Shown here in pieces: positions 1,967-38,034 of a DNA stretch of 64,000 nucleotides. The position numbers and the translations under genes were made by a program. Every line of letters begins with the position of its first letter. Position 1 is the first letter of the stretch. The notes beneath the pieces were generated by a model. That model searched no databases. It was given only the letters and a program-made list of their open reading frames with translations, and was not told the origin of the DNA. This stretch comes from an uncultured Flavobacteriaceae bacterium (GTDB lineage Bacteria; Bacteroidota; Bacteroidia; Flavobacteriales; Flavobacteriaceae), in contig CAJQLD010000028.1 in the NCBI GenBank assembly GCA_905479095.1, forward strand, positions 1 to 64,000, in the 5' to 3' direction.

Positions 1967-3928
<1,962 letters not shown>

Positions 3929-3954
3929 AAAAACAACCCCCAAAACCTACCATA

Positions 3955-5001: not shown

Positions 5002-5029
5002 ATAATCACAACAATAAATTAAAAATAAC

Positions 5030-5956
5030 ATGAAAATAACAGTAGTAGGTGCCGGCGCAGTAGGAGCAAGTTGTGCAGAATACATTGCCATTAAAAACTT
5101 TGCTTCCGAAGTTGTTTTATTAGACATCAAAGAAGGCTATGCCGAAGGAAAAGCGATGGATTTGATGCAATGTGCATCCTTAAATGGATTTGATACTAAA
5201 ATCACGGGATCGACCAATGATTATCATAAAACGGCCAATAGCGATATTTGTGTCATTACTTCGGGAATTCCAAGAAAACCGGGAATGACTCGTGAAGAAT
5301 TAATCGGAATCAATGCAGGCATTGTAAAAACAGTATCGACGAGCTTGGTTGAACACTCTCCAAATACGGTGCTTATTGTTGTCAGCAATCCAATGGATAC
5401 CATGACATACCTCGCACACAAGGTCACAGGACTTCCAAAACATAAAATTATTGGAATGGGGGGCGCTTTAGATTCTGCACGTTTCAAATATAGATTAGCA
5501 GAAGCTTTAGGCGCACCAATTAGCGATGTGGACGGGATGGTCATCGGAGGACATAGTGATGTAGGAATGGTACCTTTAACCTCGCATGCCACTCGAAATA
5601 GTATCAAAGTTTCAGAATTTATTTCAAGCGAACGCTTAGAGCAAGTAAAACAAGACACCAAAGTTGGTGGCGCAACGCTGACCAAACTTTTAGGAACCTC
5701 TGCTTGGTATGCACCAGGCGCGGCCGTAAGTGGATTGGTTCAAGCAATTGCTTGCGATCAGAAAAAAATATTCCCGTGTTCAGTTTTATTAGACGGTGAG
5801 TACGGTTTATCTGATTTGTGTATTGGAGTTCCTGTTGTATTAGGAGCAAATGGTATCGAGAAAATCGTTGAAATAAAGTTAAGCGATAGCGAAAAAGCGC
5901 ATTTACAGACAAGTGCCGATGGCGTTAAAAAAACAAATTCATTATTAGACGTATAA
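5030..5956 (+). CDS. mdh: malate dehydrogenase
   Basis: Interconverts malate and oxaloacetate with NAD in the TCA cycle. The 308-aa protein starts with a Rossmann dinucleotide loop GAGAVGAS (residues 7-14). It has the substrate-binding Arg region RKPGMTRE near 81-88 and the catalytic His in GGHSDVG near 173-179. It belongs to the LDH-like MDH group found in Bacteroidota. It is closely spaced behind the DUF6588 gene and followed by a 150-bp gap carrying the secDF promoter. L-lactate dehydrogenase is less likely because of the R-K/R-P-G-M-T-R loop. Confidence 0.95.
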   Translation: MKITVVGAGAVGASCAEYIAIKNFASEVVLLDIKEGYAEGKAMDLMQCASLNGFDTKITGSTNDYHKTANSDICVITSGIPRKPGMTREELIGINAGIVKTVSTSLVEHSPNTVLIVVSNPMDTMTYLAHKVTGLPKHKIIGMGGALDSARFKYRLAEALGAPISDVDGMVIGGHSDVGMVPLTSHATRNSIKVSEFISSERLEQVKQDTKVGGATLTKLLGTSAWYAPGAAVSGLVQAIACDQKKIFPCSVLLDGEYGLSDLCIGVPVVLGANGIEKIVEIKLSDSEKAHLQTSADGVKKTNSLLDV

Positions 5957-6039
5957 ATAGATGACCAGTGGTGTGATTTGTGTTTTTCACTAAAAAAGAG
6001 ACTTTAAAATGCCCTTTTTATTGAAAACAAAAGAATCTA

Positions 6040-6070
6040 TTGTCAATTCACATCGTAAATCATATATTTG
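6040..6070 (+). promoter_or_regulatory. secDF promoter with -33 and -7 elements
   Basis: TTG at 6040-6042 and TATATTTG at 6063-6070 are separated by 20 bp, a textbook Bacteroidota promoter. The -7 box ends 40 bp before the secDF start. Confidence 0.75.
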
Positions 6071-6110
6071 CTCGTTTATAAAAAATTAATGCAGATTAAA
6101 TTAACTCACA

Positions 6111-9104
6111 ATGCAAAATAAAGGACTCGTAAAATTATTTGCACTTCTATTTGGTTTGGTAAGTATTTACCAATTATCATTTAGTTTTAAAGCAAATCAA
6201 ATAGAAGATAATGCAACGCAATTTGCTATTGAAAAAATAGCAGATACCGAGACAGACTATGACGCTAAACGCGCGCTTGAACAAGGCAAGTATTTAGATT
6301 CGTTGAAAAACGAAGAAGTGTATAACATCGGAATTGCAAAATTTAATTTTGATGAAGTAAAGGAAAAAGCCATGAACCTTGGTTTGGATCTTAAAGGAGG
6401 AATCAATGTAATTCTTCAAATATCGGTCAAAGATATTTTAGTTGGATTAGCAAACGAAAGTAAAGACCCTGTCTTTAGAAAAGCATTAAGTGATGCAGAA
6501 GAACTTCAAAAGGACAGTCAAAACACCTATTTAGAAGACTTTTTTGTAGCCTTTGAAGCAATTGAAGGTGATACTAAATTAGCGTCTCCAGATGTTTTTG
6601 CGAATCGAACATTAAGCGAAGAGATTACATTTGATATGACAAATGATGAGGTGAAACCTGTATTATCTGCCAAAATTGATGAGTCGATTGTATCGGCCTT
6701 TGAAGTCCTTCGTAAACGTATTGATAAGTTTGGGGTTACACAACCAAACATCCAACGTATCGGAAACTCTGGACGTATTCTTGTTGAATTGCCAGGTGCT
6801 AAAGAAATTGAACGAGTCAAAGGATTATTGCAAAGTACAGCTCAACTAGAGTTTTGGGATGCTTTTAAAGGAGAAGAATTTGGAACCTTTATATTTCAAG
6901 CCAATGAAACTTTAAAAGATATTGTTGATGTCACTCCAGCCGAAGAAAAATCAAACGCAACCGAATCAACAGAAGATTCAATCTCTGATATTATTGGTGA
7001 TACCGATGCTGAAACTGGTGACGATGGTGAAGTGAATCCATTAATCGATTTAATACGTGCTCCTGGTTATAACGGAGGCCCTGTCATTGCGTCTTTTGAA
7101 CAAAAAGATAAGCAGCTCGTTACCGATTATCTAAACAACCCTCAAGTGCGTTCGCTGTTATCAGCAGAACAACGGTATGCAAAATTTGTTTGGGGAATCC
7201 CCGAAGTGCAGCAAACTGTAGGAGAAGATTCTCAAAGTATAGAACTCGTACAATTATATGCTTTAAAAGGAAATAGAGATAATAAGCCACCGCTTAGTGG
7301 CGCTGTCATTACAGACGCACGTCAATCGTACCAACAAAATGGAAGCCCAAGTGTATCCATGCAAATGAACCTTAAAGGGGCTAAAATGTGGGAAGAAATG
7401 ACAGGTAATGCTTTCAATACAGCGGGTCAAATTGCCATTGTATTAGATGAAATTGTCTATTCAGCACCTGGGGTTACAACAGGGGCAATTTCAGGAGGTA
7501 ACTCTGAAATATCAGGATCCTTTAGCTTAAATGAAGCGGTCGATTTAGCAAACGTTTTGAGAGCGGGTAAATTACCAGCCTCTGCAGATATTGTACAAGC
7601 AGAAGAAGTTGGACCCTCTTTAGGTCAAGAAGCCATTGATAGTGGAATGAAATCATTCTTAATAGCTTTATCTTTAGTACTTTTATGGATGATTTTTTAT
7701 TATGGGAAAGCAGGTATTTATTCAGATATCGCATTACTATTAAACATCTTATTAATCTTCGGGATTCTATCGGGATTAGGCGCTGTGTTAACTTTACCTG
7801 GTATTGCTGGTATTGTATTAACCATCGGTATTGCAGTAGATGCAAACGTTCTTATTTACGAGCGTATTCGAGAAGAATTATTTAAAGGAAAAGGCCAAAT
7901 TGAATCGGTTAAAGACGGATTTAACAATGCGTTATCTTCAATCTTAGATGCCAACATTACAACGGGTTTAACGGCTTTGATTTTATATATATTTGGAACG
8001 GGGCCAATCAAAGGATTTGCAACGACCCTTTTAATTGGTATTTTAACCTCATTATTTACAGCGATCTTTATTTCAAGATTATTGATCGATTGGCATTTAA
8101 GTCGTGGTGGGAAATTAGAATTCTCAACAGGAATGACCAAAGGTTTATTTCGTTCTATTAATATTGAATTCCTTAAAAAACGCAAAATTGCTTACTTAAT
8201 TTCGGGATCTATCATTATTGCTGGACTTGGATCTTTGTTTACTACAGGGCTGGATCAAGGAATTGATTTTGTTGGAGGTCGAACCTACACCGTTCGTTTT
8301 GCACAAGACATGAATACTGAAGAAGTTAAAACGGCATTAAACGACGTTTTCAACAGTGCTGAGGTAAAAACAATTGGGAGCGCGAATCAATTGAAAATAT
8401 CGACGAAGTATAAGGTTGATGAAAATTCTGCAGAAGTCGATCAGGAAGTGCAACAAAAATTATATGAAGCATTGATACCATTTTTACCAGATGCAACAAC
8501 GTATAAGCAGTTTATTGATGCCGAAAATAATATTGGTAAAATGTATTCAGGAAAAGTAAGTCCAACGATTGCCGATGATATTAAAAAATCATCTATCTGG
8601 GCAATTTTAGGCTCATTAATTGTTGTCTTTTTATATATTTTAATACGATTCAAAAAATGGCAATTTTCACTAGGAGCCGTCGCAGCTGTATTTCATGATG
8701 TCTTAATTGTATTAGGGATCTTTTCAATTGCTTGGAGATTTTTGCCATTTAGTATGGAAATCGATCAAGCATTTATTGCAGCGATTTTGACCGTGATCGG
8801 ATATTCATTGAATGATACTGTGGTGGTCTTTGATAGAATTAGAGAATACCTTAACGAACATACAAGTTGGAAATTTGAAAAAGTGGTCAATAGTGCATTG
8901 AGTAGCACGTTGAGTCGTACTTTAAACACCTCATTAACGACTTTAGTCGTGTTATTAGCGATGTTCACCTTTGGTGCAGATTCCTTAAGAGGCTTGTTGT
9001 TTGCGCTTATTGTAGGGGTGCTTGTAGGAACCTACTCATCGTTATTTATTGCAACGCCAATCATGCATGATACATTAAAGCGTTTAGATAAAAAAGAAGA
9101 TTAA
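6111..9104 (+). CDS. secDF: protein translocase subunit SecDF (fused)
   Basis: Membrane component that uses proton motive force to pull proteins through SecYEG. SecD and SecF, separate in most bacteria, are one 997-aa chain, as is usual in Bacteroidota. The SecD half has an N-terminal membrane anchor, the DLKGGINV-type motif, a large periplasmic domain with an acidic low-complexity insert near residues 280-310, and a six-helix RND domain (near 510-670). The SecF half begins near 680 and repeats the anchor, a short periplasmic loop and membrane segments with YSLNDTVVVFDR. A strong promoter precedes it and a terminator follows. Confidence 0.97.
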   Translation: MQNKGLVKLFALLFGLVSIYQLSFSFKANQIEDNATQFAIEKIADTETDYDAKRALEQGKYLDSLKNEEVYNIGIAKFNFDEVKEKAMNLGLDLKGGINVILQISVKDILVGLANESKDPVFRKALSDAEELQKDSQNTYLEDFFVAFEAIEGDTKLASPDVFANRTLSEEITFDMTNDEVKPVLSAKIDESIVSAFEVLRKRIDKFGVTQPNIQRIGNSGRILVELPGAKEIERVKGLLQSTAQLEFWDAFKGEEFGTFIFQANETLKDIVDVTPAEEKSNATESTEDSISDIIGDTDAETGDDGEVNPLIDLIRAPGYNGGPVIASFEQKDKQLVTDYLNNPQVRSLLSAEQRYAKFVWGIPEVQQTVGEDSQSIELVQLYALKGNRDNKPPLSGAVITDARQSYQQNGSPSVSMQMNLKGAKMWEEMTGNAFNTAGQIAIVLDEIVYSAPGVTTGAISGGNSEISGSFSLNEAVDLANVLRAGKLPASADIVQAEEVGPSLGQEAIDSGMKSFLIALSLVLLWMIFYYGKAGIYSDIALLLNILLIFGILSGLGAVLTLPGIAGIVLTIGIAVDANVLIYERIREELFKGKGQIESVKDGFNNALSSILDANITTGLTALILYIFGTGPIKGFATTLLIGILTSLFTAIFISRLLIDWHLSRGGKLEFSTGMTKGLFRSINIEFLKKRKIAYLISGSIIIAGLGSLFTTGLDQGIDFVGGRTYTVRFAQDMNTEEVKTALNDVFNSAEVKTIGSANQLKISTKYKVDENSAEVDQEVQQKLYEALIPFLPDATTYKQFIDAENNIGKMYSGKVSPTIADDIKKSSIWAILGSLIVVFLYILIRFKKWQFSLGAVAAVFHDVLIVLGIFSIAWRFLPFSMEIDQAFIAAILTVIGYSLNDTVVVFDRIREYLNEHTSWKFEKVVNSALSSTLSRTLNTSLTTLVVLLAMFTFGADSLRGLLFALIVGVLVGTYSSLFIATPIMHDTLKRLDKKED

Positions 9105-9123
9105 TAGCTAATTATTAAATATC

Positions 9124-9153
9124 AAAAAAGCCACTCATTGAGTGGCTTTTTTT
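9124..9153 (+). terminator. terminator after secDF
   Basis: GCCACTCA and TGAGTGGC form a stem flanked by A and T runs just past the secDF stop. The symmetry would let it work from both strands, so it may also end lgt transcripts from the other side. Confidence 0.75.
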
Positions 9154-9255
9154 GGTTTTATGTTGGACACTGTAATTTCTGAGTGGATGCAATATGGATA
9201 TATAAAGCTTTAGAGAATACTTCAGTTCTATACTGATACTACAAATCGCCTGTAA

Positions 9256-10089
9256 TTACGCTTCCTTAGGCTTATACAGAAACATAAAATAAAGACCACA
9301 AAGCACAAAAGGAACACTCAATACTTGTCCCGTGTTTAAACCAAAAATCCAATCCTCACGACTGTCAATTTGAGCAATTTTAAATTGTTCAACTACCACT
9401 CTGACCGACATTAAAAGCACTAAAAACAGCCCAAATAAAAATCCTGTCTGCGTACTTTTTTTCGTTTTCCAATATAAAAAGAATAAGATGAGAAACACAA
9501 ACACATAGCCAAAAGCCTCGTACAATTGTCCCGGGTGTCTAGGAAGTGAGTCGAGTTGTTTAAAAATAATAGCGAACGGTAAATCCGCTCCAGCAGGTTT
9601 ACCGATCATTTCGGAATTGAAGAAATTTCCAACACGAATAAATACAGCTCCAAGTGCAGATGCAATGACCACACGGTCAAGAATCCAGAGTACTGATTTT
9701 TTCAATACTTTTTTATTGTAGAGCCACATCGAAAAAATCATTCCAATGGCAGCGCCATGACTAGCCAAACCTCTAAACCCCGTAAACTCAAACCCACCAC
9801 TAAAACGGAAGGGTAGGAAGATGCTAAAAAAGTCGTCTTTAAATAATTCAGATTGATAAAAAATGACGTGACCCAAACGCGCTCCAATCATAATTCCTAA
9901 AACAGAATACATGAACAGACTGTCTAATTTGTCATCAGTTTGTCCTTCGTTTTTATAAATCTTTTTCGTCAGATACCAACCTGTGATAAACGCAGCCATC
10001 CACATGAGGCTGTAATAGTGAATTTTAAAATCTCCAAAAAGGGCGATGCCATCAGAAGTAGGGTCCCATACGGTTTGTAGCAAATACAT
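9256..10089 (-). CDS. lgt: prolipoprotein diacylglyceryl transferase
   Basis: Inner-membrane enzyme that transfers diacylglycerol to the lipobox Cys of prolipoproteins. It is multi-spanning, with the Lgt signature region RVGNFFNSEMIGKP and the conserved HPGQLYEA. The frame is open to a GTG at 10143, but the normal Lgt N-terminus (MYLLQTVWDP) starts at the ATG at 10089; an ATG at 10095 is equally possible. A TATATTTA element lies just upstream of these ATGs, which makes the longer form unlikely. It is the last gene of the folE-cysS-yidD-lgt row. Several lipoproteins in this window would be substrates. Confidence 0.93.
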   Translation of the reverse strand: MYLLQTVWDPTSDGIALFGDFKIHYYSLMWMAAFITGWYLTKKIYKNEGQTDDKLDSLFMYSVLGIMIGARLGHVIFYQSELFKDDFFSIFLPFRFSGGFEFTGFRGLASHGAAIGMIFSMWLYNKKVLKKSVLWILDRVVIASALGAVFIRVGNFFNSEMIGKPAGADLPFAIIFKQLDSLPRHPGQLYEAFGYVFVFLILFFLYWKTKKSTQTGFLFGLFLVLLMSVRVVVEQFKIAQIDSREDWIFGLNTGQVLSVPFVLCGLYFMFLYKPKEA

Positions 10090-10166
10090 AGTCATTTGTT
10101 TAGAGTGTAAATATAGAAAATAGATACGAAACTCAAGGCTCACGGATTCTAATTAACAACCATCGT

Positions 10167-10394
10167 CTAATCCTTTGGAACTGGATCCTGTCCAGAGCCT
10201 CCCCAAGGATGGCAGCGTAAAACACGTTTAATGCTTAGATAGCTCCCTTTTAGAAGTCCGTGGGATTGTAAGGCGTCTTTAGCGTAATGGGAACAAGTCG
10301 GTTGAAATCGACAAGTCGAAGGCGTTAATGGCGAAATGAGATTTTGATAAATCCAGATGATAAACAAAAAAGGTGCAATCAAAATAGATTTCAT
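10167..10394 (-). CDS. yidD: membrane protein insertion efficiency factor YidD
   Basis: A 75-aa YidD-family protein that assists YidC-dependent membrane protein insertion. It has a short N-terminal hydrophobic stretch, then the family core [18 protein letters not shown] and [17 protein letters not shown]. All conserved Cys are present, so it looks intact. It sits 5 bp downstream of cysS on the same strand and upstream of lgt. The usual rpmH-rnpA-yidC neighbourhood is absent. Confidence 0.93.
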
Positions 10395-10399
10395 AGCTA

Positions 10400-11881
10400 T
10401 TAATCTAATAAAAAGGTGGTACCGTCCTTGCCGTCTTTTAATTGAATTCCTATAGTTAGTAATTCATCTCTTATTGAATCAGACAGCGCAAAGTTTTTTT
10501 GAGATCTTGCGTCGTTTCGCATTCTGATGAGTAATTCTACAGTCTCTCCCAATTTTTGATCTTGATTGTTTGAAGTCACATTTTTAAGCCCTAAAATATC
10601 AAATACAAACTGATGCATCACTTCGGTTAAGTCTCCTAAGTCTGAAGCGTTAATATGTGCTTTTCCATCCTTAATTTGGTTGATGTATTTAACAGCACTA
10701 AACAATTCTGCAATTAGAATAGGCGTATTAAAATCATCATTCATGGCCGTATAACAATTCGATTTCCAAGTTGCGACATCAAAGTCATTGGCATCTGAAG
10801 TGGCTTCGATTTTGTCTAAAGTCGAGACCGCTTCCATGAGTTTTAAAAATCCTTTCTCGGAAGCCAATAGAGCGTCGTTACTAAAATCTAGGATGCTACG
10901 GTAGTGCGCTTGCATCATAAAAAAACGAACCACCGATGGCGAAAAGCCTTTGGTTAATTTGTTTGTATTACCGCTTAAAATCTCAGCAGGTAAAATATTG
11001 TTTCCTGTTGATTTTGCCATTTTTTGGCCATTGAGTGTCAGCATGTTGGCATGCATCCAGTAATTCACTGGCGTATGACTGTGCCAAGCTTTTGCTTGGG
11101 CAATTTCACATTCGTGATGCGGGAATTTTAAATCCATCCCACCGCCATGTATATCAAAATGCTCACCTAGGTATTTTGTACTCATCGCCGTGCATTCTAA
11201 GTGCCAGCCAGGAAATCCATCACTCCAAGGTGAAGGCCAGCGCATAATGTGTTCTGGTTCTGCTTTTTTCCAAAGTGCAAAATCTTGTGGATTTTTCTTA
11301 TCGGTTTGCCCGTCTAAAACGCGGGTGTTGTGTATGAGATCTTCAATTTTTCGACCACTTAAAATTCCATAATGATGGGATTCATTATATTTTAAAACAT
11401 CAAAATAAATAGACCCATTCGCTTCGTATGCAAAGCCTTTTTCTAAAATTGATTTAATGATTTCAATTTGTTCTACAATATGACCGGTTGCAGTCGGTTC
11501 AATGCTCGGTGGTAAAAAATTAAAGGTATTTAGGATCGTATGAAAATCAACGGTATAGCGTTGCACGACTTCCATCGGTTCAATTTGTTCTAAACGTGCT
11601 TTTTTTGCAATGCGATCTTCGCCTTGATCGGCATCATTTTCTAAGTGCCCAGCATCGGTAATATTACGCACATAGCGTACTTTATAATTAAGGTGTTTAA
11701 AATATCTAAAAATCATATCAAAGGACATGAATGTACGGACATTTCCAAGATGAACGTTGCTATACACCGTAGGGCCGCAAACATACATGCCAATCGCTCC
11801 TTCATTGATTGGTTCAAAAATTTCTTTTTTACCAGATAATGAATTGTAAATATGAAGTGTGTTTGTCGTGTATTTGCTCAT
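10400..11881 (-). CDS. cysS: cysteinyl-tRNA synthetase
   Basis: Class I synthetase that charges tRNA-Cys. The 493 aa contain the HIGH-type motif HLGN at 44-47, a zinc-site Cys in CGPTVY near 35, further zinc ligands in the WHLECTA and FPHHECE segments, and the KMSKS-type loop KMAKST near 287. Length and motif order are normal. It lies 11 bp after folE and 5 bp before yidD, so it is part of a four-gene minus-strand transcript. Confidence 0.97.
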
Positions 11882-11892
11882 AAGTTAGAGGA

Positions 11893-12570
11893 TTAAAATT
11901 TGGTCTCTAATTGTATGTAGTTCAAGAATTCTCTTTTGGTTTCTTTGTCTTTAAATTTCCCGCCAAATTCACTCGTAACGGTACTGCTTTCAATGTCTCT
12001 AATCCCTCTGGAATTGACACATAAATGTTTGGCATCTATAACACAAGCGACATCATCTGTATTTAATACGTTCTGAAGTTCTTTAACAATTTGAATGGTC
12101 AGTCGTTCCTGAACTTGTGGTCGTTTAGAAAAGTGATCGACAATACGGTTCATTTTTGAAAGTCCAACGACCGTTCCATTTGAGATGTAAGCAACATGCG
12201 CTCTTCCAACAATTGGAAGAAAATGATGTTCACAAGTAGAGTAGAGTGTGATGTTTTTTTCTACCAACATCTCTCCGTACTGATACTTATTTTCAAAAGT
12301 GGACGCTTTTGGTTTTTTTGTAGGATCTAAGCCCCCAAAAATCTCATTGACAAACATCTTTGCAACACGGTTGGGAGTTCCTTTTAAGCTGTCGTCACTC
12401 AAGTCTAAGCCCAAAGTTTCCATGATGTGCCGTACATCGTCCTTGATAATGTTTATTTTTTCGTCTGCACTTAATATAAATGCGTCAGATCGCATCGGAG
12501 TCTCTGAGGAGGTTCCGATATGATTGTCACCAATGGTGTCAAGCTTTTCAGTATTGTTTTTCAGTCCCAT
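11893..12570 (-). CDS. folE: GTP cyclohydrolase I
   Basis: Converts GTP to dihydroneopterin triphosphate, the first step of folate synthesis. The 225-aa protein has the zinc site STCEHHF near 110 and a second Cys in AKHLCVNSRG, plus the family signature GLSKMNRIVDHFSKRPQVQ. A 40-residue N-terminal extension precedes the catalytic core, as in many FolE proteins. It heads the folE-cysS-yidD-lgt row and has a -7 box 39 bp upstream. folP, a later step of the same pathway, is at 23.9-24.8 kb. Confidence 0.97.
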   Translation of the reverse strand: MGLKNNTEKLDTIGDNHIGTSSETPMRSDAFILSADEKINIIKDDVRHIMETLGLDLSDDSLKGTPNRVAKMFVNEIFGGLDPTKKPKASTFENKYQYGEMLVEKNITLYSTCEHHFLPIVGRAHVAYISNGTVVGLSKMNRIVDHFSKRPQVQERLTIQIVKELQNVLNTDDVACVIDAKHLCVNSRGIRDIESSTVTSEFGGKFKDKETKREFLNYIQLETKF

Positions 12571-12608
12571 TCGAAATTTGCAATATAGTTTTCAATGTTA
12601 TATGACGA

Positions 12609-12616
12609 CAAAGATA
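12609..12616 (-). promoter_or_regulatory. folE operon promoter -7 box
   Basis: On the minus strand the sequence reads TATCTTTG, matching TAnnTTTG, 39 bp before the folE ATG. No good -33 TTG is visible. Confidence 0.55.
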
Positions 12617-12730
12617 ATTAAATTCAGTGTTAGGCACTTTTAATTTTAGATTAATAATTTCTTTTTTCTTAAATAGAATGTCATCTTAAACGGAAATCAA
12701 GTAGATTTGAAACTGGGAGTATTTAAAATA

Positions 12731-12766
12731 AAACAACCCATCGCAAAGGGATGGGTTGTTTTTAAT
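12731..12766 (-). terminator. terminator after the FadL-type porin
   Basis: AAACAACCCATC (12731-12742) pairs perfectly with GATGGGTTGTTT (12750-12761) around a 7-nt loop, with T runs in both directions. It lies 20 bp past the porin stop. Confidence 0.8.
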
Positions 12767-12780
12767 CTATAGATGATTTC

Positions 12781-14292
12781 TTATAAATTCATACTTAATG
12801 TAATTGAAACATTGGTGTTTGTAGCGTTGATCTGAGCAGCGCCTAATGTACCAGCATTAAATAATTGGTAATCAGTTTCTCGTTTCGAGTTTTCATACGC
12901 AAGGTCTAATCGAGTGTTTCCAAAATTGTAACCTAGTCCAAGCGAAAACCCCTTTAAATCGCCATAAACAGAAGTGTCTGAATACGGGCTTTGTTCCATT
13001 TTATAGCCCCCTCGAAAGCTGTATTTTTGATGTCTTAATTCGCCACCAATTCTAAATGTATCAGCACTCGTAAGGGAATTGCTTATTAGGGTGTTTTGCT
13101 GAGAAAATCCAATTTCGCTTTCTGGTTTAAATTTGGTTTTACTGTAGTCTTTTCTAGAATAATCAATGCTAATGAGTCCTGTTTCTCCAATAATATAGGC
13201 GGCACTCCCCGTGATTTTAGCGGGTGTTTGGATTTTATAATCTTGAAATAAATTTATAACATCAGGATTAACCACTGTGCGAGTGTTGTCAGTGTCGTTA
13301 ACAGTAGAAATATACTGATTTGTTTCATCTCTTAGCGTAATCCAGGTAGGACTGTCATAAGTGAGGCCAACTCTAATAGCATCATTCAACTTAAAAATGG
13401 TTCCTAATTGTAGTGAAAATCCCTCTCCAGTTGTGAGGAGGTTGTTTTCAAAATCAACTTGATTTACGTTAGAGCCAACGTTGGTGTTTTCTTCATTGAG
13501 GTAGGCGCTTCGTTCATAATCAATAAAATGAGAATTTAAAGTCATTCCAAAATAAATATTTTTGTCATACTGAAATCCAGCATTTACAGAAAATTTACCA
13601 TTATATCCAGTGGAACTGTAATAGTATTCCTGATCGAAATCACCAGGAGCAATGTTGGAGGTGTAAGCTGAGTTGTCGTCATCTTCAGATCCAGGTTCTA
13701 AAATATAACTTTCGTATCCTAAATAAGCTTGCTGAAATCGGGAACCGTAGTTAGAGCCAATATTACTATAAGCATCAGAAATAGACTCACCAGAAAATGC
13801 CGAAATTTCATCAAGTCTGAGCCCGTTGGCATAGTCTGTAAAATAACTGCCAATAGAATTAGAAGACGCACCTGCTGCTAAAAAATTGTCATCGTAATTG
13901 TCGAGTTGTTCGTAAAAGACACTTAACACAAATTTATTCCATAAGGAAGCGTCATTTTTGTTTTTAAAAACAAACGCCGCTCCAATTTGATTCAAATCAA
14001 AATTGTCTTTATTTTCTTTGGTACTGCTGCCGCTATAGCCAACGTCATTTGAAACACTGTTGTTTGACAAGGACAAAGAGCCATGACTGAGATTAAAAAG
14101 GGCGGATCCAGCCGGGTTAACACTAACTGCAGACATATCACCACCCAGGGCGCCAAAGGCACCACTCATGGCTCTAAAACGCGCAGTTCCTTGTGTGTTT
14201 TCAGTTGAATAGCGCAACGCATCTGAAATATTTTGACCATAAGAGGCTGTGAGGGAAATGACTCCCATAAATGCTAAAATTATTTTTTTCAT
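12781..14292 (-). CDS. OmpP1/FadL-type outer membrane transport protein
   Basis: A 503-aa outer-membrane protein. A signal peptide of about 19 residues (ends TASYGQ) is followed by the FadL-family N-terminal segment AMSGAFGALGGDMSAVSVNPAG, here with the NPAG hatch motif. The rest is beta-strand-like, ending in LSMNL. FadL proteins move fatty acids or other hydrophobic compounds across the outer membrane; the substrate here is unknown. It is transcribed right after the lipoprotein at 14317-15360 (24 bp gap), so the two may form an operon. Confidence 0.85.
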   Translation of the reverse strand: MKKIILAFMGVISLTASYGQNISDALRYSTENTQGTARFRAMSGAFGALGGDMSAVSVNPAGSALFNLSHGSLSLSNNSVSNDVGYSGSSTKENKDNFDLNQIGAAFVFKNKNDASLWNKFVLSVFYEQLDNYDDNFLAAGASSNSIGSYFTDYANGLRLDEISAFSGESISDAYSNIGSNYGSRFQQAYLGYESYILEPGSEDDDNSAYTSNIAPGDFDQEYYYSSTGYNGKFSVNAGFQYDKNIYFGMTLNSHFIDYERSAYLNEENTNVGSNVNQVDFENNLLTTGEGFSLQLGTIFKLNDAIRVGLTYDSPTWITLRDETNQYISTVNDTDNTRTVVNPDVINLFQDYKIQTPAKITGSAAYIIGETGLISIDYSRKDYSKTKFKPESEIGFSQQNTLISNSLTSADTFRIGGELRHQKYSFRGGYKMEQSPYSDTSVYGDLKGFSLGLGYNFGNTRLDLAYENSKRETDYQLFNAGTLGAAQINATNTNVSITLSMNL

Positions 14293-14316
14293 TGTATTTT
14301 TTTTAAAGTAATTCTA

Positions 14317-31742: not shown

Positions 31743-31816
31743 GGCCTCGTAGCATAACTGAATAGTGCACTTGATTACGGCTCAAGAGGTTGCAAGTTTG
31801 AATCTTGCCGAGGTCA
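31743..31816 (+). tRNA. tRNA-Arg (anticodon ACG)
   Basis: Folds as a normal cloverleaf. The acceptor is GGCCTCG/CGAGGTC, the D-stem GCAT/GTGC, the anticodon stem CTTGA/TCAAG around TTACGGC, the variable loop AGGTT and the T-stem GCAAG/CTTGC. The discriminator is A and no CCA is encoded. The D-loop AACTGAATA has one G only: position 18 is G but 19 is A. The T-loop is TTTGAAT, so position 56 is T. The canonical G19-C56 pair is replaced by a possible A19-U56. Confidence 0.93.
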
Positions 31817-31821
31817 CACAT

Positions 31822-31867
31822 AAAATACTAAAATCATTGACATTCAATGGTTTTAGTATTTTTTTTA
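31822..31867 (+). terminator. terminator after tRNA-Arg
   Basis: An 18-bp stem: 31822-31839 (begins AAAATACTAAAATC) pairs with 31845-31862 with one mismatch, around a 5-nt loop, then a T run. It begins 6 bp after the tRNA. Confidence 0.8.
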
Positions 31868-31909
31868 TCTTTATTTGTCTAATACTTGTCCACATTTTAT
31901 GCTTACTGA

Positions 31910-32368
31910 ATATGCAAAAGAATCATTTATCCCTTAGCACTTTTTAATTTAAATGATGCTTTAGAATTTAAAACTTATTCTGATATTTAAAAAATTAATA
32001 GTCCACAGCTTGAGAAAGCAGATATTTATATAAGTTCGTGTCTAAAAAAATATAAAAATCAACACTTAATAACTCAACTTCTTTTGTTATTTCCGAACCT
32101 TTCTTTTTCTAATATAGGGGAGTTTGATTTAGACGAACTATTAGATGTGAAATCTGTACACAACAAAGAAAAGTTAAAACAGGTATTAAATTTTAGATTT
32201 AATATTTCTTTAATAAATAATATTTTTGATGAGATTGAAAAAACAGAGGGAGCGAAAATTGACAAGAAATTGTTTTACACTGATTTTTTTATTTTTTCAT
32301 ATAAATATTTTTTTACAGAACTCATAAATTGTATTAACTGTAGCTTGGTTATAGAGCCTGAGTTTTAA
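31910..32368 (+). pseudogene. decayed or start-less reading frame, unknown family
   Basis: One reading frame is open from 31910 to a TAA at 31988-31990, then open again to the stop ending at 32368 (about 126 codons). The translated text looks protein-like throughout, for example KADIYISSCLKKYKNQH and DELLDVKSVHNKEKLKQV. The second part has no ATG before its middle; only a TTG at 32084 gives a 94-aa product. I do not recognise the family. The simplest reading is a gene with a premature stop and lost start, lying just behind the tRNA-Arg terminator. A real 94-aa protein from the TTG remains possible. Confidence 0.4.
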
Positions 32369-32385
32369 AAACGTATCGCATTATG

Positions 32386-32415
32386 TTGATTGCTATACAA
32401 AAGTCATTATATTTG
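32386..32415 (+). promoter_or_regulatory. promoter of the FISUMP gene
   Basis: TTG at 32386-32388 and TATATTTG at 32408-32415, 19 bp apart; the -7 box ends 34 bp before the ATG. Confidence 0.7.
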
Positions 32416-32449
32416 AACTTGAAACCAATTACACTTTTAAAATACTAAG

Positions 32450-33325
32450 ATGAGAAAAATAACAGTACTAGTTTTGATGCTTTTTACAACACATATCTAC
32501 GCTCAAGGCATTGAACTCAATGGGACAATAAGCGCCGAAGACAATCAAATCAAAAACTTGCAAGACCCTACAGAGGCTCAGGATGCGGTTACTTTATCTG
32601 TTCTATTGGAAAAGATTTCAGCGCTTCAAGACCAAATAGATAACGCACAGATAGGCTCAATAACAGACGTTGACGGTAATACGTACAACAGCCTAACTTA
32701 CGGCAACCAAGTATGGACTTTAGAAAACGCTGAGATGGAAACCTATAGAGACGGTACAGAGATTCCACAAATCACGGAAGCAGGTGGTTGGGCAGCCCTC
32801 ACCACAGGCGCTTGGTGTTATTATGAGAATGACGAAACAAAAGGAAAGCTTTATAATTGGTATGCAGTGATGGGCATTCACGATGCTGATTCATCGTCAG
32901 ACCCATCGCTTAGAAAAGAATTTTCACCAGAAGGTTGGCACGTACCAAGTGAAGCTGAGTGGCTCACTTTAGAAGATTATCTCATAGCCAATGGATATAA
33001 CTATGACGGCACCATTACAGGAAATAAAATCGCCAAAGCGATGTCTTCTACTACAGGATGGACTAGTACCACAATAGCAGGTGCAGTAGGCAATAACCAA
33101 AGCTCTAACAACAATAGTGGCTTTAATGCTCTTCCTGAGGGTCGTCGTAGCAACGATGGATCGTTTGTCAACGAGAGTTTCGATGCTTTCTTTTGGAGTT
33201 CAACTGAGTTCTCTTTGGATACATATAAAGCGCGGAACCGCAAACTCTCTTACGATTACGGTTTTCTAAACAGGGACTACAGTGACAAGCAGAGCGGCTT
33301 TTCAGTGCGTTTTGTTAGGGATTAA
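32450..33325 (+). CDS. secreted FISUMP-domain protein
   Basis: A 291-aa exported protein. Signal peptide of about 19 residues ends HIYAQ. Residues ~20-75 form a short helical linker with a coiled-coil-like segment SVLLEKISALQDQID. The remainder is a Fibrobacter succinogenes major paralogous domain: DVDGNTYNSLTYGNQVW, then KLYNWYAV, GWHVPSEAEW, and GFNALPEGRR, FFWSSTE, FSVRFVRD. FISUMP proteins are secreted or surface proteins of unknown role. There is no T9SS tail. It has its own promoter and a terminator and is flanked by decayed DNA and repeats, so it is probably accessory. Confidence 0.85.
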   Translation: MRKITVLVLMLFTTHIYAQGIELNGTISAEDNQIKNLQDPTEAQDAVTLSVLLEKISALQDQIDNAQIGSITDVDGNTYNSLTYGNQVWTLENAEMETYRDGTEIPQITEAGGWAALTTGAWCYYENDETKGKLYNWYAVMGIHDADSSSDPSLRKEFSPEGWHVPSEAEWLTLEDYLIANGYNYDGTITGNKIAKAMSSTTGWTSTTIAGAVGNNQSSNNNSGFNALPEGRRSNDGSFVNESFDAFFWSSTEFSLDTYKARNRKLSYDYGFLNRDYSDKQSGFSVRFVRD

Positions 33326-33350
33326 TTTTTCTTGACGCTTGACTCTTAAA

Positions 33351-33380
33351 GGGGCTGGCCTTGTGCAGCCCCGTCTTTTT
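33351..33380 (+). terminator. terminator after the FISUMP gene
   Basis: GGGGCTG (33351-33357) and CAGCCCC (33366-33372) form a GC-rich stem with an 8-nt loop, followed by GTCTTTTT. Confidence 0.75.
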
Positions 33381-33645
33381 CAATCAGCGCCGTAAGGTGC
33401 TTACAAAATCTAACGCAACTTTGGGTTAGATTTTTTCTAAGAAGTATCAAAAAAGTTGTTTAAAAAATCGAGGGTTTGTTTCGAAGACAGCTCAATGGGA
33501 TGTAAAGTCAAACCAGTAATCTACGTTGCGGGTTTATTTTTTCTATCAAAAACAAGTTTCAAAAATATAATTGAGTTTAACTACAAAGTTCGAACTTTGG
33601 ATAGTTTGGGTCACTTAAGAATAGAAAGTCTGCATAATTTGCAGA
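33381..33645. other. gene-free stretch with two more hairpins
   Basis: No supported gene; the open frame at 33456-33662 runs into a hairpin and a repeat and has no family features. AAAATCTAAC (33405-33414) pairs with GTTAGATTTT (33425-33434) before a T run. AAAGTCTGCA (33625-33634) pairs with TGCAGACTTT (33640-33649), again before T's. Each looks like an intrinsic terminator, but no gene is upstream of the second; it may be the end of a lost gene or of a small RNA. Confidence 0.5.
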
Positions 33646-33762
33646 CTTTTTTGTTTTTGTAAGAAACTTAAATGTATTTAAGTTTTCAAGCGGAAACAAA
33701 ACTAAAAAGCTATGGTTCTTGAGGTTCTATTTAGACTACGGAGCTCAAAAGAGCACCATAGG
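33646..33762. repeat. 117-bp direct repeat, copy 1
   Basis: Identical base for base to 35535-35651. It contains a perfect palindrome AAACTTAAAT-GT-ATTTAAGTTT (33664-33685) and a wider inverted pair CTATGGT (33710-33716) / ACCATAG (33755-33761). Flanks differ between the copies. Copy 1 follows a terminator hairpin; the ATPase gene starts 249 bp after it. Confidence 0.9.
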
Positions 33763-34011
33763 TAATCTTGCAGCGGTCGTTTTTTTTGTTGATTCTCAAA
33801 GCGGAGCTTTGTCAAGGTCATGCAACACTCTTGCTGAGGTTCTACTTGATGTCCAAGAGAATGATTAAATATCTGTAAATGTGACCCTTAGAAGATCATA
33901 AAACAGGTTCTTTAAAAAACACTATTGACTTTGGTATAATATTTTTCAATAACAGGCTTTACTTTGTTACAGAAAAACAATATATTTGCAGTTACTTTGT
34001 AACATTTTATT
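33763..34011. other. leader region of the ATPase gene with repeated operator-like sites
   Basis: No gene seen. CAAAGC-GGA-GCTTTG at 33798-33812 is a small hairpin. A -7 box TATATTTG lies at 33981-33988, 23 bp before the TTG start of the ATPase gene. It is bracketed by TTACTTTGTTAC (33959-33970) and TTACTTTGTAAC (33992-34003), spaced 33 bp; the second is inside the perfect palindrome GTTAC-TTT-GTAAC. Confidence 0.5.
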
Positions 34012-35373
34012 TTGATTTTAAAAAGACATCTTACTGCACAATTGCATAAATGGAAAAACAAATCCAATCGAAAACCATTAATTGTTAGAGGAGCAAGACA
34101 AGTCGGTAAAACGACTTTGATAAATGAGTTTTCAAAAACGTATAAAAATCGGCTATACCTTAACTTAGAGAAAAAAGCAGATAGTCAGTACTTTGATCAA
34201 ACGGATAATGTAAATACGATCATTGAAGCTCTATTTATTTCAAATAATATCATTTCTAAAGACATTAGCAATACAGTGCTTTTCATTGATGAGATACAAG
34301 AACAACCAAAAGCAATACAGCTTTTACGGTATTTTTATGAAGAGGCTCCAGAACTTCACGTTATAGCGGCAGGTTCTTTACTCGAATTTGCACTTAAAAA
34401 TGTTAAAAGTTTCCCTGTTGGAAGAGTTGAGTTTTTATATTTATACCCTTTTAATTTTATAGAATACTTAGAAGCAATTGGTCACAGTACAGGTATAGAA
34501 CAACTAAATAATATTCCTATAAATAAAGTTGCACATAAAACGTTACTCGATTTATTCAATAAATACACGATTATAGGAGGAATGCCAGAAATACTTAGTC
34601 AATTTTCCAAAAGTAAAAGTGTCGTAGATCTCTCTTCTATTTATGAGAGTATTTGGAGTTCATACATTAGTGATTCAGAAAAATATACAACCAATACAAC
34701 GGCAAAAAATGTAATTAAACATATTATGTCATCTGCTGCATATGTTGTAGATGAGCGAATAAAATTTCAAAATTTCGGTAATTCTAACTACAGGTCAAGA
34801 GAAGTTGGTGAAGCAATGCGGAATTTACATCAAGCAAAGGTTATTCAGCTAATTTATCCAACAACTGTTACAGAACCACCTATAATTCCAGATTTAAAAA
34901 AATCACCTAGACTACAATTTTTGGATACGGGCATACTCAATCATCTTTTAGGGATCCGAGCAGAGATGTTGGTTTTAGAAGATTTAAGCCAAAGTTATAA
35001 AGGAGCTATTATTCCACATATGATCACGCAGGAACTAATTTCTATCCAAAGTAATAAGCCAGAATCCCCTAATTTTTGGGTAAGAGAAAAGAAGCAAGCT
35101 TCATCAGAAGTGGATTTGGTTTTTGCGATGGATGGAAAGGTTATCCCAATTGAAATTAAATCAGGAAGTACAGGCTCATTAAAATCACTTCATCAATTTA
35201 TAGAGCGCACAAATCATCCCTATGCTATCAGAATATTCGCAGGTGAGTTTTCAATACAAGAGACAAAAACACCCAATGGAACTCCATACTTACTGATGAA
35301 TCTACCTTACTATTTAGGAACTCTAATTCCTAAATACATCACCTATTTTATGAAAAACCACCAATTATTGTAA
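34012..35373 (+). CDS. AAA ATPase with DUF4143 and nuclease-like C-terminus
   Basis: A 453-aa protein. The N-terminal ATPase has Walker A GARQVGKTTLI (about 27-37), Walker B VLFIDEIQE (about 88-96) and an AAGSLLEFAL sensor-like segment. The C-terminal DUF4143 part ends in SEVDLVFAMDGKVIPIEIKSG, the D...ExK layout of PD-(D/E)XK nuclease folds. Start is TTG at 34012, which restores the family N-terminus (ILKRHLTAQLHKWKN). The family is common in Bacteroidota, often in several copies; no function is established. It is the only gene between two copies of a perfect 117-bp direct repeat. Confidence 0.88.
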   Translation: MILKRHLTAQLHKWKNKSNRKPLIVRGARQVGKTTLINEFSKTYKNRLYLNLEKKADSQYFDQTDNVNTIIEALFISNNIISKDISNTVLFIDEIQEQPKAIQLLRYFYEEAPELHVIAAGSLLEFALKNVKSFPVGRVEFLYLYPFNFIEYLEAIGHSTGIEQLNNIPINKVAHKTLLDLFNKYTIIGGMPEILSQFSKSKSVVDLSSIYESIWSSYISDSEKYTTNTTAKNVIKHIMSSAAYVVDERIKFQNFGNSNYRSREVGEAMRNLHQAKVIQLIYPTTVTEPPIIPDLKKSPRLQFLDTGILNHLLGIRAEMLVLEDLSQSYKGAIIPHMITQELISIQSNKPESPNFWVREKKQASSEVDLVFAMDGKVIPIEIKSGSTGSLKSLHQFIERTNHPYAIRIFAGEFSIQETKTPNGTPYLLMNLPYYLGTLIPKYITYFMKNHQLL

Positions 35374-35414
35374 ACATAATTTTTTTTGATGGATTTTATA
35401 AAAGTAGATAAACA

Positions 35415-35514
35415 TGTCATTCTGAATTTATTTCAGAATCTTAAAGTATCGAAACTTAATAATTATGAGACGCTGAAACGAGCTTGTCTGCCGATAGGCA
35501 GGTTCAGCTTGACA
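35415..35514. repeat. palindromic intergenic repeat with nested mini-element
   Basis: A 100-bp element bounded by TGTCA (35415-35419) and TGACA (35510-35514). Inside are TTCTGAA/TTCAGAA (35420-35438) and GCTGAA/TTCAGC (35472-35477, 35503-35508). The right-hand arm is split by a short palindrome CTGCC-GATA-GGCAG (35488-35501). It resembles the CATTCTGA...TTCAGAATG repeats scattered in flavobacterial genomes, from memory. Confidence 0.7.
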
Positions 35515-35534
35515 ATAAAAAAAAATCAGACCTC

Positions 35535-35651
35535 CTTTTTTGTTTTTGTAAGAAACTTAAATGTATTTAAGTTTTCAAGCGGAAACAAAACTAAAAAGCT
35601 ATGGTTCTTGAGGTTCTATTTAGACTACGGAGCTCAAAAGAGCACCATAGG
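35535..35651. repeat. 117-bp direct repeat, copy 2
   Basis: Identical to 33646-33762; 1,889 bp start to start. The upstream terminator hairpin half seen at copy 1 is lost here (CAGACCTCC replaces it). This copy is bracketed by CTGAAACGAGC (35473-35483) and its exact reverse complement GCTCGTTTCAG (35715-35725). Confidence 0.9.
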
Positions 35652-36186: not shown

Positions 36187-36456
36187 TTACGGATCTGCCG
36201 TTCTGTTTGAAGATTTTTTTTTGAATAAGCTATTTCTTTTTCTTTGAATTTCTAAACGTTCTTCGACGACTCTATAGATAGCTGCTTCAATGATATTATG
36301 CTTTTCGCCGTTCATTACATTAGTGATTTGTCCTGTAGAGTAAGGCTCACCGTGCATGTTGTATTCATTGCAATCGATTAATTCCTTTTGAATGATGGGT
36401 GCACATCGATGTCCGATAATTCTCTTTATGGATTCTTTGGTTGTTTTATTAATCAT
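36187..36456 (-). CDS. small phage-type DNA-binding protein
   Basis: An 89-aa basic protein. The segment YSTGQITNVMNGEKHNIIEAAIYRVV reads like a helix-turn-helix (turn around the conserved G-x-I then V-x-N-G), as in the small regulators next to CI-like repressors in flavobacterial mobile elements. A basic tail LEIQRKRNSLFKKKSSNR follows. It is divergent from the XRE-like gene at 36564, and the 107 bp between them contain operator-like direct repeats. Family assignment rests on the motif and layout only. Confidence 0.6.
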   Translation of the reverse strand: MINKTTKESIKRIIGHRCAPIIQKELIDCNEYNMHGEPYSTGQITNVMNGEKHNIIEAAIYRVVEERLEIQRKRNSLFKKKSSNRTADP

Positions 36457-36530
36457 AGAAAATCTTATTTTGTTAATTCGCTTTTTTCTTTTACTTTACT
36501 GTCACATTACTGCTATAGATACAACATAAA

Positions 36531-36559
36531 TATCTAATATATAAAATAATTATCTAATA
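36531..36559. promoter_or_regulatory. direct-repeat operator between divergent regulators
   Basis: TATCTAATA occurs at 36531-36539 and again at 36551-36559, exactly 20 bp (two helical turns) apart, directly upstream of the XRE-like ATG. The spacing suits a dimeric repressor bound on one DNA face. Confidence 0.5.
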
Positions 36560-36563
36560 ATCA

Positions 36564-36914
36564 ATGACGCATAAAGAAAAAATATTGAAATATCTTAATT
36601 ACAAAGGAATCAAACCTTCCGTTTTTTATAGGAATTGTAATTTTTCAAATGGATTTTTAGACTCCGGAAAGTCTTTAGGGTCAGATAAACTTAGCGTAAT
36701 ATTAGATAATTATCAAGACTTAAGTATCGATTGGTTACTGCGTGATGAAGGCGAAATGCTTTTATCGGACACCAGTAATGTAAATGAACCTAAATTAATT
36801 TATGGTAAAAGTGTCAAGGATTTGCTTTATGAGCAATTTGAAGAAAACAGAATATTAAAGCTTGAAAATAAATCGTTAAAGGAAACTGTGGAGAATTTAA
36901 AAAAAACGGAGTAA
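36564..36914 (+). CDS. XRE/CI-like repressor with coiled-coil tail
   Basis: A 116-aa protein. Residues ~1-70 look like the CI-type helix-turn-helix of Bacteroidota regulators: KILKYLNYKGIKPSVFYRN, then FLDSGKSLGSDKLSVIL, then LSIDWLLRDEGEML, the last being the usual end of this domain. A coiled coil (YEQFEENRILKLENKSLKE) probably dimerises it. There is no peptidase or ligand domain, so induction is not through RecA-type cleavage. It is divergent from the small DNA-binding gene. Confidence 0.75.
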   Translation: MTHKEKILKYLNYKGIKPSVFYRNCNFSNGFLDSGKSLGSDKLSVILDNYQDLSIDWLLRDEGEMLLSDTSNVNEPKLIYGKSVKDLLYEQFEENRILKLENKSLKETVENLKKTE

Positions 36915-36979
36915 CAAGTTCCTTTTTTTCAAACCCACTCGAATTGATAATTTTTCTTAAAAATATAAAACGAGTTAAC

Positions 36980-36987
36980 TATCTTTG
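36980..36987 (+). promoter_or_regulatory. galE promoter -7 box
   Basis: TATCTTTG matches TAnnTTTG and ends 15 bp before the ATG at 37003. It overlaps the TTG at 36985 that would start a longer frame, ruling that start out. Confidence 0.65.
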
Positions 36988-37002
36988 AGTTTTAATAAAT
37001 AT

Positions 37003-38034
37003 ATGAAAGATAAAGTTATTGTTACCGGCGGTTGTGGATATATTGGGTCCCATACAGTAATCACATTGATTCACCACAATTATGAAGTCGTGATCATTGA
37101 TGATTTTTCAAACTCAAGTCCTCAAATTTTAGATCGTATTGAGCGTATTTCAGGCGTAAGGCCCCATTTTGAACAGGTCGATTTGAAATCGTTTGAAGCG
37201 ACTCAAGCCGTTTTTAAGACCCATAAAGATGCCAAGGCCGTCATTCATTTTGCAGCTCATAAAGCGGTGGCAGAATCGATTCAAAATCCATTGATGTATT
37301 ATCAAAACAATCTTTTTTCATTATTAAATGTGTTGAAAGCCCAGCAGGAAAACAGCATCAATCATCTTATTTTTTCCTCCTCAGCAACCGTCTACGGAAA
37401 TCCTTCCAAAATGCCAATTACAGAAGATGCGCCTACGCAGCGGTCCTCTTCGCCTTATGGAAATACCAAAAAAATTGCGGAAGAAATTTTAGAAGATTTT
37501 ACAAATTCTCAATCTGAAATATCCGTCATTTCATTGCGTTATTTCAATCCAATTGGTGCGCATGCGTCCGGACAAATAGGGGAGTTTCCGAGTGGAATCC
37601 CTAATAATTTAATGCCTTACATCACACAAACCGCAGCGGGCATTAGAGAAAAATTGATGGTCTTTGGAAACGATTACCCAACCAAAGATGGAACGCCCAT
37701 TAGAGACTACATTCATGTAGTAGATTTGGCCGAAGCGCACTTGAAAGCACTTGAACGACTGTTAGATACAAGCACCACATCCCCATTAGAAATTTTTAAT
37801 GTAGGTACTGGAAATGGTTTTTCGGTATTAGAAATGATTAAAGCTTTTGAAGCGGTAAGCGGAAGCCCATTAAATTACGAAATCACAGATCGAAGACCTG
37901 GCGATGTTCCAGAAATGTTTGCCTCTACAACTTTGGCCAAAAATGTTTTAAAATGGGAAGCAAGCCGTAATTTAAAAGACATGATTCAATCGTCCTGGAC
38001 CTGGGAACAAAATCTAAGAAGCGAGCTCAAATAA
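37003..38034 (+). CDS. galE: UDP-glucose 4-epimerase
   Basis: Interconverts UDP-glucose and UDP-galactose for surface polysaccharide synthesis. The 343 aa start with the NAD loop TGGCGYIGSHT. The catalytic Ser-Tyr-Lys set is in FSSSATVYG and SPYGNTKKIAE (YxxxK). The C-terminal RPGDVPEMFAS is typical. Start is ATG 37003 rather than the TTG at 36985, because the -7 box ends at 36987. It marks the return to core genome and converges on the cco locus. Confidence 0.95.
   Translation: MKDKVIVTGGCGYIGSHTVITLIHHNYEVVIIDDFSNSSPQILDRIERISGVRPHFEQVDLKSFEATQAVFKTHKDAKAVIHFAAHKAVAESIQNPLMYYQNNLFSLLNVLKAQQENSINHLIFSSSATVYGNPSKMPITEDAPTQRSSSPYGNTKKIAEEILEDFTNSQSEISVISLRYFNPIGAHASGQIGEFPSGIPNNLMPYITQTAAGIREKLMVFGNDYPTKDGTPIRDYIHVVDLAEAHLKALERLLDTSTTSPLEIFNVGTGNGFSVLEMIKAFEAVSGSPLNYEITDRRPGDVPEMFASTTLAKNVLKWEASRNLKDMIQSSWTWEQNLRSELK

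What the first reader, a model, noticed from the sequence alone, without database searches (positions are those of the whole stretch)
33646..35651. A perfect 117-bp direct repeat brackets the AAA/DUF4143 ATPase gene: a possible excisable unit
33646-33762 and 35535-35651 are identical over 117 bp and lie 1,889 bp apart, with only the ATPase gene between. Such long perfect repeats should not persist by chance. Recombination between them would delete the gene and leave one copy. The repeat could also be the target or the product of the ATPase, whose C-terminus has the PD-(D/E)XK layout.
Basis: partly seen in the sequence, partly recalled or inferred. Interest (0 to 1): 0.6.

Follow-up and report, generated by a model that had tools for sequence, protein, structure and literature searches.

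The report
tRNA-linked repeat flanking a defence-candidate gene
The two identical 117-bp stretches are copies of a conserved, folded non-coding segment that normally lies just behind arginine tRNA genes in Flavobacteriaceae, and they bracket a predicted anti-phage gene at a tRNA site where foreign DNA repeatedly inserts; it matters because this segment is missing from the RNA-family library and marks gene cassettes that sit at tRNA genes without carrying an integrase.

Summary
The repeat is real: exactly 117 bp, only two copies in this assembly. In other genera the same sequence sits immediately 3' of tRNA-Arg. It is most of a ~165-nt non-coding unit (outer stem, three hairpins, strong compensatory change, absent from Rfam), usually followed by a copy of the local tRNA 3' end; both window copies are followed by a degenerate one. 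Cargo between tRNA-Arg and galE varies among genus mates: prophage with integrase in one, no ATPase in another. The ATPase matches PADLOC defence candidate PDC-S01; 87% and 83% relatives lie inside 61-kb and 50-kb tRNA-Arg elements with integrase and exact displaced tRNA ends. Best reading: decayed, integrase-less cargo at a tRNA-Arg attachment array, bracketed by duplicated trailer units. Loss by recombination is possible, not shown. The 117-bp sequence is not the ATPase's target: 63 ATPase loci lack a significant copy, and many units lack the ATPase. Yet such ATPase genes elsewhere are unusually often bracketed by unrelated direct repeats, some being 3' ends of neighbouring genes, so ATPase-driven movement stays open.

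The parts
31743..31817 (+). tRNA-Arg (acg); its last 17 nt (31801-31817, AATCTTGCCGAGGTCAC) are the presumed attachment core
   Evidence: ARAGORN; core comparison
31818..33608 (.). 1.79-kb segment inserted between the tRNA and its trailer unit (small ORF 32084-32368, Fib_succ_major protein 32450-33325); ends in ...GGTCAC
   Evidence: In G165 the tRNA runs directly into the sequence found at window 33609 (84% over 137 bp)
33609..33763 (+). trailer unit, copy 1, full length: outer stem plus three hairpins, then TTTAGACTACGGAGC
   Evidence: cmsearch R1 33615-33749, 109.7 bits; covariation
33646..33762 (+). 117-bp direct repeat, copy 1
33764..33780 (+). degenerate tRNA-Arg 3' end behind copy 1 (4 of 17 mismatched)
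33779..33843 (+). remnant of a further unit end (83% to G123 over 59 bp) with degenerate core 33827-33843 (5 of 17 mismatched)
33926..34004 (+). three iterons (TTACTTTGTTACA-like) with 33-bp period in front of the ATPase gene
34012..35373 (+). AAA_14/DUF4143 ATPase, 453 aa, PADLOC candidate PDC-S01
   Evidence: Pfam; PADLOC E 1.9e-190; model pLDDT 87
35535..35651 (+). 117-bp direct repeat, copy 2: trailer unit lacking an intact first hairpin
   Evidence: R1 match 35509-35638, 70.8 bits
35653..35669 (+). degenerate tRNA-Arg 3' end behind copy 2 (4 of 17 mismatched), followed by TTAAGAA as behind intact tRNA-Arg genes
36187..38034 (.). conserved right flank of the hotspot: small ORF (-), HTH-like ORF (+), galE-like epimerase (+)
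   Evidence: same order in G123 and G410

Best explanation
The locus is a tRNA-Arg(acg) attachment hotspot that has collected DNA in tandem. The 117-bp repeat is most of a conserved ~165-nt structured unit of the tRNA trailer, normally lying directly 3' of tRNA-Arg and followed by a second copy of the tRNA 3' end. Integrative elements use the tRNA 3' end as attachment core, and each arrival leaves a displaced copy of that core, with or without the unit. The ATPase, a candidate single-gene anti-phage system (PDC-S01), arrived as cargo of such an element, or moved within one, and survives without integrase between two units. The cores beside it are decayed, so integrase-driven excision is now unlikely; RecA-type recombination over the 117 bp could still delete the gene or keep the copies identical. 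Shown here: unit, structure, tRNA link, array anatomy, variable cargo, intact relatives of the whole element. Inferred: route of arrival, defence function, present-day loss.
For: Homologues of the repeat lie directly 3' of tRNA-Arg in other genera, mostly followed by a copy of the local tRNA 3' end, in several exact over 17 bp. Among 59 tRNAs in the fetched loci, 23 have such a copy within 500 bp downstream and 0 upstream (loci chosen partly for the unit). Folding: 22 of 41 and 25 of 42 pairs with two-sided changes in two separate alignments; 93.6% of cells paired against 37-56% when slid; 0 of 500 shuffles. Islands between unit or core copies: 12.8 kb (G211), 15.6 kb (G258), 3-6 kb cassettes (G150). 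Variable cargo at the same tRNA in the genus, including a ~42-kb prophage with tyrosine integrase. Relatives of the ATPase (87% and 83%) inside a 61-kb element at tRNA-Arg(acg) and a 50-kb element at tRNA-Arg(tcg), each with an adjacent integrase and exact displaced tRNA end; in Flagellimonas the ATPase is the last gene, about 180 bp from that end. The copies differ at 0 of 117 sites while G000 and G123 differ by about 12-14% in unit and ATPase, so duplication or conversion is recent.
Against: No integrase lies near the window array; the only two PF00589 genes of the assembly are on other contigs. The cores beside the copies are degenerate while the 117 bp are identical, which simple site-specific integration does not explain; conversion or a later duplication must be added. 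G123 has the ATPase but only one unit. The unit was not found in phages or plasmids and its motif not in viral contigs, and the two complete elements do not carry it at the ends examined, so it looks like a host tRNA-locus feature rather than an element end. Short ATPase relatives bracketed by other repeats may point to a mobility mechanism of the ATPase itself.
Confidence: 0.6

Rival explanations
1. The PDC-S01 ATPase gene with its iterons is itself a minimal mobile unit. It inserts beside gene ends, duplicating or carrying a copy of the gene end; at this locus the duplicated target was the tRNA trailer unit.
For: Relatives are tightly bracketed by direct repeats of unrelated sequence (59-222 bp, 77-94% identical; period 1.57-1.90 kb); exact words of 14 bp or more in 7 of 55 loci against 0 of 123 control genes, p = 2e-4. 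In L183, L164 and L169 the right copy is the C-terminal coding end of a neighbouring gene and the left copy a displaced version. Iterons with 33-bp period upstream of 49 of 52 relatives.
Against: 48 of 55 relatives show no bracket. At tRNA-Arg the ATPase also sits inside large integrase-bearing elements. No transposase-like signature; the protein is described as a defence candidate. Joining the flanks restored no interrupted reading frame of note. L183 and L202 are one event, so about six independent cases.
Confidence: 0.17
2. The unit is a functional structured RNA released from the tRNA transcript, amplified in tandem for its own sake as with the repeats behind E. coli tyrT; the ATPase lies between two copies by coincidence.
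For: Compensatory changes; G-U cells exceed A-C cells 30:8 and 21:5, so the tRNA-sense strand is the folded one. Gene-free tandem copies, e.g. 163-bp steps behind tRNA-Pro.
Against: The structure contains terminator-like hairpins, so covariation may only reflect termination. Copies are often separated by 3-15 kb of genes. No expression data.
Confidence: 0.18
3. The second copy is an assembly artefact of the fragmented assembly.
For: G000 is fragmented (102 contigs) and G123 lacks the second copy.
Against: Both sides of copy 2 are in the order seen in G123; copy 2 has its own degenerate core and a different left flank, so it is not a collapsed join.
Confidence: 0.03

Closest known systems
tDNA genomic islands as defined by Islander (PMC4383910)
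   Same: Intact tRNA gene on one side, displaced tRNA 3' fragment on the other, cargo between; tandem occupation of one tRNA; intact relatives in Flagellimonas and Lutibacter meet the definition
   Different: In the window no integrase, displaced ends degenerate, segment under 2 kb, and a conserved structured unit accompanies the core
CIMEs and tandem accretion (PMC5704250, citing Pavlovic 2004 and Bellanger 2011)
   Same: Integrase-less remnants between attachment sites, accreted in tandem at one gene end
   Different: Attachment cores mostly decayed here; the flanking identity is in the trailer unit; no cis mobilisation shown
Tandem 178-bp repeats / rtT RNA behind E. coli tyrT (from memory)
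   Same: Non-coding repeat behind a tRNA gene that includes a copy of the tRNA 3' end
   Different: No Rfam match to any such family; found at several tRNA species, with gene cassettes between copies
PDC-S01, PADLOC defence candidate (ATPase fused to PD-(D/E)XK; PMC12988326)
   Same: The ATPase matches at E 1.9e-190 over its whole length
   Different: Nothing functional; the 33-bp iterons and repeat brackets are not mentioned in the passages read
Integron gene cassettes with attC sites
   Same: Gene cassettes separated by a structured recombination-like segment
   Different: The folded strand is the tRNA-sense strand, not the bottom strand; anchored to tRNA 3' ends

Membership tests
tDNA genomic island | intact tRNA gene at one end | tested here: met
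   tRNA-Arg(acg) 31743-31817
tDNA genomic island | displaced tRNA 3' fragment at the other end | tested here: inconclusive
   cores at 33764 and 35653 with 4 of 17 mismatches, above chance, but not exact; exact in Flagellimonas and Lutibacter
tDNA genomic island | tyrosine integrase inside | tested here: not met
   PF00589 hits of G000 only on C21 and C45
CIME | retained attL and attR, integration genes lost | tested here: inconclusive
   integrase absent; cores degenerate
CIME | a related complete element exists | tested here: met
   tRNA-Arg elements with integrase and ATPase in G639 and G641
Integron cassette (attC) | folded bottom strand acts as site | tested here: not met
   G-U exceeds A-C on the tRNA-sense strand, 30:8 and 21:5
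Known RNA family | covariance model match in Rfam 15 | tested here: not met
   only tRNA itself reached gathering level
PDC-S01 | profile match over the full protein | tested here: met
   PDLC04788, residues 1-448, E 1.9e-190
PDC-S01 | anti-phage activity | not testable with these tools
   validation reported as pending for most candidates (PMC12988326)

The most novel reading that the evidence does not exclude
AAA/DUF4143 (PDC-S01) genes with their 33-bp iterons are minimal mobile units that insert beside gene 3' ends, tRNA or protein, and regenerate the end they disturb, leaving direct repeats of target sequence; the 117-bp pair is one such footprint in a structured tRNA trailer.
Probability: 0.15. 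Interest if true: 0.8.

Novelty: new variant of a known kind. Interest (0 to 1): 0.56.

Why it matters
It gives a readable footprint for integrase-less gene cassettes at tRNA genes across Flavobacteriaceae and adds a structured tRNA-trailer unit missing from Rfam. It places a very common but untested defence candidate (PDC-S01) at the edge of tRNA-Arg elements, and exposes two regularities of that gene family, 33-bp-phased upstream iterons and recurrent direct-repeat brackets, that make its mobility and DNA target testable.

Tried and rejected
Repeat as an ATPase-specific target: rejected, no significant unit in 63 ATPase loci. Common dispersed repeat: rejected, only two copies in the assembly. 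attC-like site: not supported by strand bias. Known RNA family: none. Phage or plasmid attachment arm: motif absent from viral contigs, unit absent from phages and plasmids. Interrupted host gene inside the ATPase brackets: joined flanks gave no restored frame of note; the copies are gene ends instead. Contig identity for the Mariniflexile and L153 elements failed, so they are not counted. Brackets around other DUF4143 genes partly reflect tandem paralogues and are not counted. Solved relatives by sequence: none; Foldseek gave only generic AAA-type matches, led by Pyrococcus 2qen.

Full report
1. Observation. The two stretches 33646-33762 and 35535-35651 are identical over exactly 117 bp and diverge immediately outside. 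The assembly holds no other copy. The sequence folds better than all 200 shuffles. The ATPase at 34012-35373 carries AAA_14 and DUF4143.

2. What the repeat is. ARAGORN finds tRNA-Arg(acg) at 31743-31817. In a genome of another genus (G165) the tRNA-Arg runs straight into the sequence that the window has at 33609-33745, 84% identical over 137 bp. So in the window a 1.79-kb segment (31818-33608) lies between the tRNA and its usual trailer. A pattern search found the motif TTTAGACTACGGA plus a tRNA-like end in 12 of 397 family genomes from 10 genera; most hits lie beside tRNA-Arg (acg, tct or tcg), one (L051) does not. The ~165-bp unit between the tRNA end and its copy is conserved: TTAAGAAT, a terminator-like hairpin, two more hairpins, TTTAGACTACGGAG, then usually a copy of the local tRNA 3' end, exact over 17 bp in several genomes.

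3. The unit is structured. RNAalifold on ten sequences gives an outer stem and three hairpins with two-sided changes in 22 of 41 pairs. Twelve further units, found with the resulting covariance model but aligned by sequence, give the same fold: 25 of 42 pairs with two-sided changes, 93.6% of cells paired against 37-56% when partners are slid, 0 of 500 shuffles. These twelve were selected by the model, which leans towards the structure. G-U cells exceed A-C cells on the tRNA-sense strand (30:8, 21:5), which favours an RNA. No Rfam family matches. Part of the signal may simply be transcription termination.

4. Distribution. The model matches 86 of 397 family genomes at E <= 0.01 and 6 of 246 genomes drawn from the order at E <= 1e-5. 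Strong hits lie beside tRNA-Arg; weaker hits lie beside tRNA-Pro, Lys, Phe and Met, and some of these may be look-alike terminators. Many show tandem copies of the local tRNA end: 163-bp steps behind tRNA-Pro in G219, 15.6 kb behind tRNA-Lys in G258, cassettes of 3, 6 and 3 kb behind tRNA-Phe in G150, 12.8 kb in G211. Same-locus copies inside a genome are mostly 96-100% identical (one of four in G150 is 90%), against about 70-88% between genomes.

5. The hotspot in this genus. The order rhodanese-like gene, tRNA-Arg, variable stretch, galE is kept where contigs reach. G123 has a prophage of about 42 kb with a tyrosine integrase directly behind the tRNA, then the ATPase at 92% identity. G410 has the flanks but not the ATPase: 372 bp stand where the window has 2413 bp. 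Only G000 and G123 of 18 genus genomes carry the ATPase.

6. The window array. Degenerate tRNA-Arg 3' ends follow each 117-bp copy at nearly the same offset (33764 and 35653, 4 of 17 mismatched; 0.03 expected in this stretch), and a third lies at 33827. Copy 2 lacks an intact first hairpin. The copies are identical although G000 and G123 differ by about 12-14% in the same sequences, so the duplication or a conversion is recent.

7. The ATPase. It matches PADLOC's single-gene candidate PDC-S01 at E 1.9e-190, described in PMC12988326 as an ATPase fused to a PD-(D/E)XK member, with validation pending for most such candidates. In Flagellimonas hymeniacidonis an 87% relative is the last gene of a 61-kb element running from tRNA-Arg(acg) with adjacent integrase to an exact displaced tRNA end about 180 bp behind the ATPase. 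In Lutibacter oceani an 83% relative lies in a 50-kb element at tRNA-Arg(tcg) with the same anatomy. The ends of these elements that were examined carry no significant unit.

8. A complication. Of 55 ATPase relatives with flanks, 7 are bracketed by direct repeats sharing an exact word of 14 bp or more, against 0 of 123 control genes. The sequences differ from locus to locus. In L183, L164 and L169 one copy is the C-terminal end of the neighbouring gene and the other a displaced version of it, as at tRNA islands. These inserts hold only the ATPase and its iterons, which repeat every 33 bp upstream of 49 of 52 relatives. I cannot tell whether these are decayed islands, inserts mobilised in trans, or units moved by the ATPase.

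9. Judgement. The finding is a true repeat with a different meaning from the one proposed: a duplicated tRNA-trailer unit at a tRNA-Arg attachment array, bracketing a defence-candidate gene. Excision by recombination between the copies is plausible and untested.

Noticed in passing
33926-34004 and upstream of ATPase relatives L151-L202: Iterons with 33-bp period in front of 49 of 52 relatives; several other DUF4143 genes of the order show a 32-33 bp period.
   Followed up: partly
L137 (G302), reverse strand, cores 2787-4562: Tandem array with exact 355-bp spacing behind tRNA-Arg(tct); each unit holds a small GIY-YIG nuclease ORF and a truncated tRNA.
   Followed up: partly
L132 (G150), reverse strand, 2343-14299: Tandem cassettes behind tRNA-Phe, each with a unit, an RHS-type open reading frame and small downstream ORFs.
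   Followed up: no
L129 (G258): 15.6-kb stretch with sugar-utilisation genes (SusC/D-like, glycoside hydrolase-like, kinase, transporter) between duplicated tRNA-Lys ends, no integrase noticed among the ORFs listed.
   Followed up: no
window 33575-33608, L091, L094: A second type of segment end (AAGTTCGAACTTT...TTTGGG) next to the tRNA-like GGTCAC in the window and L091, similar in L094.
   Followed up: no
L034 4746-5486 and 8295-9034: In G123 the small-ORF/HTH pair beside galE has a second, diverged copy near the right end of the prophage.
   Followed up: no
G427 C39 and G174 C3: DUF4143 ATPase genes in tandem.
   Followed up: no
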